Shown in pieces: positions 53,775-55,568 of a DNA stretch of 64,000 nt. Origin of the DNA: Mycobacteriaceae bacterium. Lineage in GTDB: Bacteria > Actinomycetota > Actinomycetes > Mycobacteriales > Mycobacteriaceae. Made by a program: the position numbers and the translations under genes. Each line of letters opens with the position of its first letter. The stretch's first letter is position 1. Under the pieces are notes generated by a model. It was not told where the DNA came from. It did no database searches and saw only the letters and a program-made list of their open reading frames with translations. The stretch is from assembly GCA_019245755.1 (NCBI GenBank), contig JAFARC010000019.1:1-64000 (forward strand). Direction: 5' to 3'.

Positions 53775-54365
53775 ATGAGCTTGGTGATACTGGAGTGTTC
53801 GAGGGCAATCTTGAATCGCGAAGGCAAGCGCATTTCTCGAGGCCGAAGCCGCCCGGTGGATAAGGCGTTCCGGGTTTTGGCCCGGAAACAGGGACTGCGG
53901 TTGCGGACGTCGCTGGATGACTGGTTGCCGGCCGATCACCTGGCCCGGTTCATCGCCGCGTTGGTCAACCACTTGGACCTTGCCCGCATTCGGGCCGCAT
54001 ACACCGAGGAGGACGGCACGCGGTCGTGTGATCCGCGGCTGATGGTGCGAATCCTCCTGTACGGCTACACGATCGGGGTGCGTTCGTCCCGGGTGATCGA
54101 ATGCAAATGCGTCGATGATGTCGCCTTTCGGTGGCTGGCCTCCGGGGCGGCGCCGGACTATCGGACGATCGTCCGGTTCCGCGAGCGCCACCTGTCCGCG
54201 CTTGGACACCTGTTCGCGCAGGCGTTGGCGTTGTGCCAAACCGCGGGCGTGGTCCGGCTGGGCGTGGTCCCTCTCGACGGGAAGAGGGTGCAGGCCGACG
54301 TTCTCGCGGAGAAGGTCTCGGCCCTGCTGGCCGACGCCGAAAGGATCGATAAAGCCGAGGACGGC
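53775..54365 (+). pseudogene. IS1182-family transposase, N-terminal fragment fused in frame to rpfB
   Basis: About residues 25-197 of the open frame match the N-terminal (DUF772) part of IS1182 transposases: LDDWLPADHLARFIAALVNH, DPRLMVRILLYGYTIGVRSS, CVDDVAFRWLASGAAPDYRT, IVRFRERHLSALGHLF and VVPLDGKRVQAD with the first catalytic Asp. The rest of the DDE domain is missing, so it cannot transpose. The frame has no stop before the downstream rpfB start, giving a 597-codon fused frame to 55568. The region 54366-54473 joins the two without recognisable similarity. Whether a fusion protein is made is unknown. Confidence 0.85.
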
Positions 54366-54473
54366 GTGCGCTCACGCGGATTTGGACTGGTTCACGGTGA
54401 GCAGCACGCCGCAAAACGCGCGGCCCGACGGCCCCACGGCCATGCGGCGACCCTGGGAAAAGCCATCGCGGAA

Positions 54474-55568
54474 GTGAGGCACAAGCGTGCGCTGGTCGGC
54501 GGGCTCCTGGTGGCGTTGGCGCTCGCGGGCGGCTACGCCGTTGCAGTGCACAAGACGGTCACGCTGTCGGTCGACGGCGTACCAATGACTGTGTCGACGA
54601 TGAAGTCGCGGGTCATCGACGTGGTGAGGCAAAACGGCTTCGCGGTCGGTGACCACGACGATCTTTATCCGACCGCCGACCAGCCGGTCCATCAGTCTGA
54701 CACCATCGTCCTGCGCCGCGGCCGACCGCTGCAGGTGTCGATAGATGGCCAGCCGAGCAAGAAGATGTGGACGACGGCATTGACTGTCGACCAGGCTCTC
54801 AAGCAGCTGTCGATGAGCGATGCCGCCCCCGCGGCGGCGTCTCGCACCAGCCGATTGCCGCTGACCGGCATGGCGCTGACATTGGTGACCCCCAAGAACG
54901 TGCACATCAACGACGGCGGTGTGGCCAGCGTTCATCGCCTGGCGGCGGCCGACGTGGGTCTGCTACTGGCGGCGGCCGGTGCGCCGCTGGAAGAGGGCGA
55001 CAAGGTGGTGCCCCCGGCGTGGACCCCGGTCACCGACGGCATGGAGATCTCGGTCACCCGCATCCGGCTTCAGGACATTACGACGCGCATGCCGCTGCCG
55101 GCATCGACGCGGCGCATCGAGGATCCGACGATGAACATGAGCCGCCGCGTCGTCGTAGATCCCGGCACTCCCGGCACCCAAGACGTCACGTTCGCGGTGT
55201 CAATTGTCAACGGGGTCGTAACCGGCCGACGGCTCGTCGCTCACGACATCCTGACACCCGCCCGGCCGACGGTCCTGCGGATCGGCGCCAAGCCAGGCAC
55301 CGAGGTGCCGCCAGTGACCAACGCCGCGACTTGGGACGCGGTCGCCTCCTGCGAAGCTAGCGGTAACTGGTCCATAAACACCGGCAACGGCTTCTACGGC
55401 GGTGTGCAGTTCGACCAGCCGACCTGGGAGCGCAACGGTGGACTGCGGTACGCAGCGCGCGCCGACCTGGCCACTCGAGAAGAGCAGATCGCAATCGCGG
55501 AGGTCACCCAGGCCCGCCAGGGCTGGGGCGCCTGGCCGGTATGCGGGGCCAGGGTCGGGATGAATTGA
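54474..55568 (+). CDS. rpfB: resuscitation-promoting factor RpfB, 364 aa (frame open upstream into a transposase fragment)
   Basis: A cell-wall lytic transglycosylase that helps wake dormant cells. From GTG 54474 the order is a membrane anchor (ALVGGLLVALALAGGYAVAV), three DUF348 domains (about 30-190), a G5 domain (about 200-280) and the Rpf catalytic domain (286-364). The domain starts TWDAVASCEASGNW, with catalytic Glu294 and the cysteine pair Cys293/Cys357. The length nearly equals M. tuberculosis RpfB (362). There rpfB lies between tatD and ksgA; here it lies in an accessory region after IS debris, so it may be a second copy or a moved gene. The same frame runs upstream without a stop to 53775. 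Confidence 0.9.
   Translation: MRHKRALVGGLLVALALAGGYAVAVHKTVTLSVDGVPMTVSTMKSRVIDVVRQNGFAVGDHDDLYPTADQPVHQSDTIVLRRGRPLQVSIDGQPSKKMWTTALTVDQALKQLSMSDAAPAAASRTSRLPLTGMALTLVTPKNVHINDGGVASVHRLAAADVGLLLAAAGAPLEEGDKVVPPAWTPVTDGMEISVTRIRLQDITTRMPLPASTRRIEDPTMNMSRRVVVDPGTPGTQDVTFAVSIVNGVVTGRRLVAHDILTPARPTVLRIGAKPGTEVPPVTNAATWDAVASCEASGNWSINTGNGFYGGVQFDQPTWERNGGLRYAARADLATREEQIAIAEVTQARQGWGAWPVCGARVGMN

What the first reader, a model, noticed from the sequence alone, without database searches (positions are those of the whole stretch)
53775..55568. RpfB fused in frame to an IS1182-type transposase fragment
The first ~197 codons match the N-terminal DUF772 part of IS1182 transposases and the last ~364 codons are a complete RpfB (membrane anchor, DUF348, G5, Rpf domain with catalytic Glu). 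No stop separates them. The element has lost most of its DDE domain. Either rpfB has kept its own GTG at 54474 and the upstream frame is accidental, or a chimeric factor with a cytoplasmic transposase-derived N-terminus is made. In M. tuberculosis rpfB sits by ksgA, so this copy is also out of its usual place.
Basis: partly seen in the sequence, partly recalled or inferred. Interest (0 to 1): 0.8.

Follow-up and report, generated by a model that had tools for sequence, protein, structure and literature searches.

The report
Conserved transposase–RpfB membrane chimera
Some mycobacteria carry a second copy of the cell-wall enzyme gene rpfB whose front end is a piece of a jumping-gene enzyme, joined in one open reading frame that purifying selection has kept across species; it likely makes a membrane protein whose inner part would still recognise DNA, perhaps the jumping-gene end that is kept in front of its own gene.

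Summary
The fused frame is real (53775-55568, 597 codons): IS1182-type DUF772 domain, basic linker, one predicted membrane helix, complete RpfB. It is not accidental. The same in-frame fusion occurs in 22 of 396 sampled Mycobacterium genomes. Trees of both halves point to one origin (one support value is below the tool's mark). The transposase-derived domain is under purifying selection (omega 0.28, neutrality rejected by 193 log units), weaker than on the RpfB half (0.13); the first ~45 codons vary. This genome also has the canonical rpfB beside ksgA, so this is a paralogue. The upstream DNA is the left end of the insertion sequence; a subterminal 16-22 bp element at fixed spacing before a -10-like box is conserved while the outer IS tip decayed. 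I propose a domesticated, membrane-tethered, predicted DNA-binding form of RpfB that likely regulates its own promoter. The selected chimera is well supported; DNA binding and autoregulation are inferred, fold searches gave no DNA-binding match, and a plain dimerising or anchoring role remains a strong rival.

The parts
53718..53739 (+). IS1182-end-derived conserved element (22 bp; motif ACACGCCGGGCGGGGTGATCGG, 2 mismatches here)
53759..53764 (+). -10-like box (GATGAT), 41 nt after the start of the element; predicted promoter, which would give a nearly leaderless transcript
   Evidence: prediction only
53775..55568 (+). fused reading frame, 597 aa, ATG start in a context (CTGATGA) shared with several relatives
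53898..54371 (+). IS1182-transposase-derived N-domain (residues 42-199; DUF772 81-149)
54372..54488 (+). basic linker (residues 200-238) in the place of the transposase's insertion region; in relatives it often ends in KAQR or a variant
54492..54548 (+). single predicted transmembrane helix (residues 240-258), N-terminus predicted inside
54558..55292 (+). DUF348 repeats (three stretches) and G5 domain (residues 435-506)
55320..55544 (+). Rpf transglycosylase-like domain (residues 516-590), with E527, invariant in the 99-row alignment, at the position of the known catalytic Glu (that role is recalled)

Best explanation
This is a conserved paralogue of RpfB whose N-terminus is the DUF772 domain of an IS1182 transposase, likely fused once in a mycobacterial ancestor and since kept by purifying selection, and it likely works as a membrane-tethered regulator whose cytoplasmic domain would bind the IS-end element kept in front of its own gene. 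Shown: one open frame; the same fusion in many species; kinship of both halves; selection on the transposase-derived domain; loss of the rest of the DDE catalytic core; a join at the RpfB membrane helix; the IS left end as 5' region with one conserved element. Inferred: that the protein is made from ATG 53775 (about 0.9), with N-terminus inside and RpfB domains outside; that the N-domain still recognises DNA (about 0.45); that it acts on its own promoter, coupling wall state or Rpf activity to transcription in the manner of ToxR/CadC-type one-component receptors (about 0.35).
For: All 119 listed database relatives besides the window's own protein carry both PF05598 and PF03990 (the query region 30-300 spans the join, which favours fusions in the ranking). 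RpfB-part tree: 38 of 39 fusions in one clade (95/97), whose sister is this genome's canonical copy plus one other (fork 94/86). DUF772 tree: 39 of 39 fusions on one side of a branch (88/95, not starred; 86% of 200 bootstrap trees), inside a group with Mycobacterium and Rhodococcus IS1182 (100/99). Codon ML omega 0.277 for the N-domain, lnL -5688.9 against -5881.4 at omega 1. Of 61 columns conserved in transposases, 29 are at least 90% conserved in fusions, among them R106, R119, R136, H139. Junction at KAQR, then the membrane helix. Element core 16 bp: mean divergence 0.074 in the eight loci without lnt upstream, against 0.353 spacer and 0.474 outer IS tip and 0.24-0.25 at third codon positions. 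The nine sites with 0-1 mismatch in 22 fusion genomes are all at the fusion gene. This genome has no other match to the N-domain.
Confidence: 0.55

Rival explanations
1. The chimera is made and selected, but the N-domain is only a cytoplasmic oligomerisation or anchoring extension: it would dimerise RpfB or hold it at the membrane, and the IS end only supplies the promoter.
For: All-helical N-domain model with long helices; no DNA-binding fold match; relaxed omega; the element lies close to a -10-like box.
Against: The residues kept between transposases and fusions include R106, R119, R136 and H139; the conserved core of the element lies upstream of where a -35 box would be by spacing, and the spacer is much less conserved.
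Confidence: 0.35
2. The upstream frame is incidental: rpfB2 is translated from an internal start (GTG 54474 here) and the transposase remnant is decaying.
For: Relaxed omega; variable first ~45 codons; 14 of 22 loci have some in-frame start within 16 codons before to 2 after the inferred membrane-helix start, five of them a GTG at codon -5 (for L072 the helix was misplaced, so its row is not informative).
Against: Neutrality rejected; no stop within the fused frame in the 21 loci, in L100 or in L179; internal starts not conserved in position, 8 of 22 without one.
Confidence: 0.07
3. Repeated independent fusions or mis-assembly join IS1182 to rpfB.
For: L072 is placed apart in the RpfB tree; flanks differ between lineages, and none of the window's neighbouring reading frames was found beside the fusion in the 21 loci compared; the support for one origin in the DUF772 tree is below the tool's mark.
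Against: Both trees favour one origin; the join is alike; shared flanks within subclades; single-contig genomes carry it (G192, G153; G207).
Confidence: 0.03

Closest known systems
Canonical actinobacterial RpfB (DUF348 x3, G5, Rpf; rpfB between tatD and ksgA)
   Same: Same domains, order, predicted membrane helix and Rpf domain; 74% identity to this genome's own ksgA-linked copy
   Different: Extra ~238-residue N-terminal part, mostly transposase-derived, in place of the short RpfB N-terminus; other locus; own IS-derived 5' region
IS1182 family transposase (DUF772 plus DDE domain)
   Same: N-domain up to the KAQR linker; IS left end upstream; closest kin in Mycobacterium and Rhodococcus among the 32 transposases compared
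   Different: The catalytic core after the linker is gone; outer IS tip decayed; followed by a membrane helix and RpfB
ToxR/CadC membrane-integrated one-component regulators
   Same: Layout, as far as predicted: cytoplasmic domain thought to bind DNA, one helix, outer domain (PMC6320335, abstract and outline read; others seen only in the listing)
   Different: Unrelated N-domain family; outer part is a wall enzyme; DNA binding not shown
Host-transposase fusion genes of eukaryotes
   Same: Transposase domain captured by a host gene (PMC12062965, start of abstract seen; other examples recalled)
   Different: Bacterial, a membrane protein, an IS1182 domain. Searches listed no paper whose title or abstract start reports such a fusion; the papers they listed were not read

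Membership tests
RpfB | three DUF348 repeats, G5 and C-terminal Rpf domain | tested here: met
RpfB | sequence kinship with solved RpfB | tested here: met
   5e27 E 6.6e-105
RpfB | single membrane helix before the DUF348 repeats | tested here: met
   residues 240-258, hydropathy only; no longer near the N-terminus
RpfB | (typical, not defining) tatD-rpfB-ksgA neighbourhood | tested here: not met
   the window copy is elsewhere; the canonical copy has it. The usual context is from PMC1084345 (passages read); duplicates elsewhere are known there for the related spsB genes
RpfB | muralytic and resuscitation activity | not testable with these tools
   needs an enzyme assay
IS1182 transposase | DUF772 N-domain of IS1182 type | tested here: met
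IS1182 transposase | complete DDE catalytic domain; NCBIfam cut-off | tested here: not met
   121 of 270 bits, only model positions 9-169 of 488; in fusions the transposase part ends at the KAQR linker
IS1182 transposase | element bounded by two intact inverted repeats | tested here: not met
   outer left tip not recognisable in the window; right end not searched
ToxR/CadC-like one-component regulator | cytoplasmic DNA-binding domain that binds an operator | not testable with these tools
   needs a binding assay; fold search gave no significant match either way
ToxR/CadC-like one-component regulator | winged-helix (OmpR-type) N-domain | tested here: inconclusive
   Pfam reports DUF772 and no such domain, but the fold search was not significant; it could work like one without being a member

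The most novel reading that the evidence does not exclude
A bacterial regulator was born by capture of half an insertion sequence together with its end: the transposase's DNA-recognition domain became the cytoplasmic half of a membrane-spanning wall enzyme, and the IS end became its operator, so that a resuscitation factor reads wall state outside and sets its own transcription inside.
Probability: 0.3. Interest if true: 0.88.

Novelty: new variant of a known kind. Interest (0 to 1): 0.74.

Why it matters
Captured transposase domains are, as far as I recall, known mainly from eukaryotes; here one was fixed in bacteria in front of a wall enzyme tied to dormancy exit, with the IS end kept as a candidate operator. 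If the N-domain binds DNA, Rpf activity, usually thought of as purely extracytoplasmic, would have a direct line to the chromosome, and the question of how resuscitation factors signal becomes testable with one purified domain and one 22-bp site. Source names for such proteins vary between 'resuscitation-promoting factor RpfB' and 'YabE (DUF348 family)/transposase', so the family is not recognised as one.

Tried and rejected

Rows dropped: L072 from the codon, column-conservation and element-divergence sets; L011, L177, L178 from the canonical codon set; only the 16 of 22 loci with the -10-like pattern entered; 22 loci entered and 21. The groups 'lnt' and 'no lnt' were set by hand; a ~500-codon frame ends inside the element in L073, L075, L077, L079, L083, L085 and 46 nt after its start in L081 and L076. 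Of the 60 genomes with N-domain matches, 22 are fusions; 17 others were judged by their best locus, 2 by fetched loci and 19 by a full-length search.

Full report
What is there. Window 53775-55568 (+) is one open frame of 597 codons. It holds a DUF772 domain (residues 81-149), three DUF348 stretches, a G5 domain and a Transglycosylas/Rpf domain; residues 42-199 match NCBIfam's IS1182 transposase as a fragment. One hydrophobic helix lies at 240-258, preceded by a basic stretch. The RpfB half matches solved RpfB structures.

It is a paralogue. The same genome (4.17 Mb, 82 contigs) has a canonical RpfB, 74% identical, at C5:252900-253973, among reading frames that I read as ksgA, ispE, tatD and metG (names by my reading of the translations). 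The genome has no other match to the transposase-derived part.

The fusion is conserved. Among 396 genomes of the genus, 60 match the N-domain. Following these up shows 22 with the N-domain joined in frame to RpfB; 38 have IS1182 transposases, fragments or remnants, judged by the best locus in 17, fetched loci in 2 and a full-length search in 19. Strongly diverged N-domains could be missed. In the protein database the 120 listed rows (one is the window's own protein) all carry PF05598 and PF03990, and 111 also PF06737; the query region spanned the join, so fusions rank first by construction, but their number shows that the family is broad. Outside the genus I found only matches without RpfB.

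One origin. In a tree of the RpfB half (39 fusions, 25 canonical), 38 fusions form a clade (95/97) whose sister is this genome's canonical copy with one other (94/86). The odd one, L072, is a long branch; one clade is not rejected (AU p 0.334), and without it the fusions are one clade (SH-aLRT 97, quick tree). In a tree of the N-domain (39 fusions, 32 transposases) all fusions lie on one side of a branch (88/95, not starred; the bootstrap had not fully settled), within a group of Mycobacterium and Rhodococcus IS1182 (100/99). So one origin is favoured, not proven.

The join. Intact transposases run PKPKAQR-NFTDPDSKIM; fusions run, for example, PKPKAQR-ALVGALLLALTFAGG..., the RpfB membrane helix. 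KAQR is the commonest ending before the helix (54 of at least 118 sequences parsed, others mostly variants). The catalytic core after the linker is gone.

Selection. On 148 codons of the N-domain from 21 fusion loci the ML omega is 0.277; for the RpfB half 0.132; for ten IS1182 N-domains 0.065; for 22 canonical RpfB 0.088. With omega fixed at 1 the N-domain likelihood falls from -5688.9 to -5881.4 at the best kappa tried. Pairwise NG86 medians are 0.42, 0.32, 0.11 and 0.16 in the same order, and mean N-domain differences by codon position 0.278, 0.225 and 0.379. So the domain is constrained, more loosely than its source. The first ~45 codons are not: there the frame has shifted relative to the transposase in different ways in different lineages. 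Of 61 columns conserved in transposases, 29 are conserved in at least 90% of fusions, 42 in at least 75%, and five in under half, K171 in 3%.

Start. An internal start for RpfB alone is not conserved: 14 of 22 loci have an in-frame start codon near the helix, at scattered places, five of them a GTG at codon -5; the window's own GTG 54474 is at a place used by no other.

The 5' region is an IS end. Four identical copies of an IS1182 element in M. frederiksbergense define a 1707-bp element with the terminal repeat CTAGGAGCGTGGGTC. Its subterminal stretch, AACACGCC(G/T)GGCGGG..., stands upstream of the fusions. A -10-like box was recognised in 16 of 22 loci, and in all 16 the element starts exactly 41 nt before the box; its 16-bp core differs by 0.094 on average, against 0.554 for the outer tip, 0.517 for the spacer and 0.709 further upstream (loci were lined up on the first six bases of the element). 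Over the 22 loci, 19 have it within 4 mismatches, while the best match elsewhere in the same loci has 5-8; L069 has a one-base shift, L070 is degenerate, L072 lacks it. Eight loci have an lnt-like gene just upstream whose frame runs into or past the element, so coding could conserve it there; in the eight loci without lnt the core still differs by only 0.074, against 0.353 in the spacer and 0.24-0.25 at third codon positions; the whole 22 bp differ by 0.157. These pairs are not independent, so I give no probability. In 22 fusion genomes the nine sites with 0-1 mismatch are all at the fusion; of 51 sites with up to 3 mismatches 17 are at fusions and 34 elsewhere, against 2 for the reversed control; the 34 were not followed. 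In the window the element is at 53718-53739, the box at 53759-53764, the ATG at 53775.

Structure. AlphaFold2 on 39 diverse N-domains gives a fairly confident all-helical model (pLDDT 80, pTM 0.72). Foldseek and VIA-align against the PDB give nothing significant. DNA binding therefore rests on descent from a transposase and on retained residues, not on fold.

Mechanism. The most economical reading: half an IS1182 element, with its left end, start region and N-domain, was joined to a duplicated rpfB at the membrane helix. The product would sit with the N-domain in the cytoplasm and RpfB outside. Because both the domain and its putative site were kept while the rest of the element was lost, I propose that the domain likely still binds the element, which by spacing lies just upstream of a -35 region, and regulates the gene. 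The main rival is that the N-domain only dimerises or anchors and the element is only promoter.

Literature. Searches for Rpf with transposase and fusion, DUF772, IS1182, paralog and second copy, and for domesticated transposases, listed no report of this fusion by title or abstract start; the listed papers were not read, and the library holds only open-access papers. PMC1084345 (passages read) describes RpfB architecture and the tatD-ksgA context and does not contain the word transposase. PMC6320335 (abstract and outline) describes CadC as a membrane-integrated DNA-binding receptor.

Noticed in passing
P0203: A database protein joins an IS1182 N-domain (93% identical to the query transposase) to a PknH_C extracellular domain with no evident membrane helix between; possibly a truncated IS reading into a neighbour.
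   Followed up: partly
L073, L075, L077, L079, L083, L085: The IS-derived element supplies the last codons and stop (TRRAG or TRRTG, then TGA) of an upstream frame that in L073 is apolipoprotein N-acyltransferase-like.
   Followed up: partly
L069:10862-11836: A PknH_C domain gene lies directly downstream of the fusion in G163; matching reading frames lie beside the fusion in two other soil MAGs.
   Followed up: no
window 56069-58225 (+): 718-aa repeat-rich protein with no Pfam match, with tandem charged repeats (such as DDDDHRRDRDHRV); the start looks like IniB (recalled).
   Followed up: no
L094-L097: Four copies, alike over 1707 bp, of an IS1182 element on the chromosome and a plasmid of Mycolicibacterium frederiksbergense LB 501T.
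   Followed up: partly
window 47684-47778 (-) and 47847-47933 (+): Small SRP RNA next to a tRNA-Ser(GGA) on the opposite strand.
   Followed up: no
L089 (Rhodococcus opacus): An IS1182-like frame of 287 aa that leaves the transposase reading just after the PKPKAQR linker, near the place of the fusion junction.
   Followed up: no
G000:C8:4752-5544: Two further Rpf-domain genes in tandem about 0.6 kb apart in the window's genome, and another at C39:83845.
   Followed up: no
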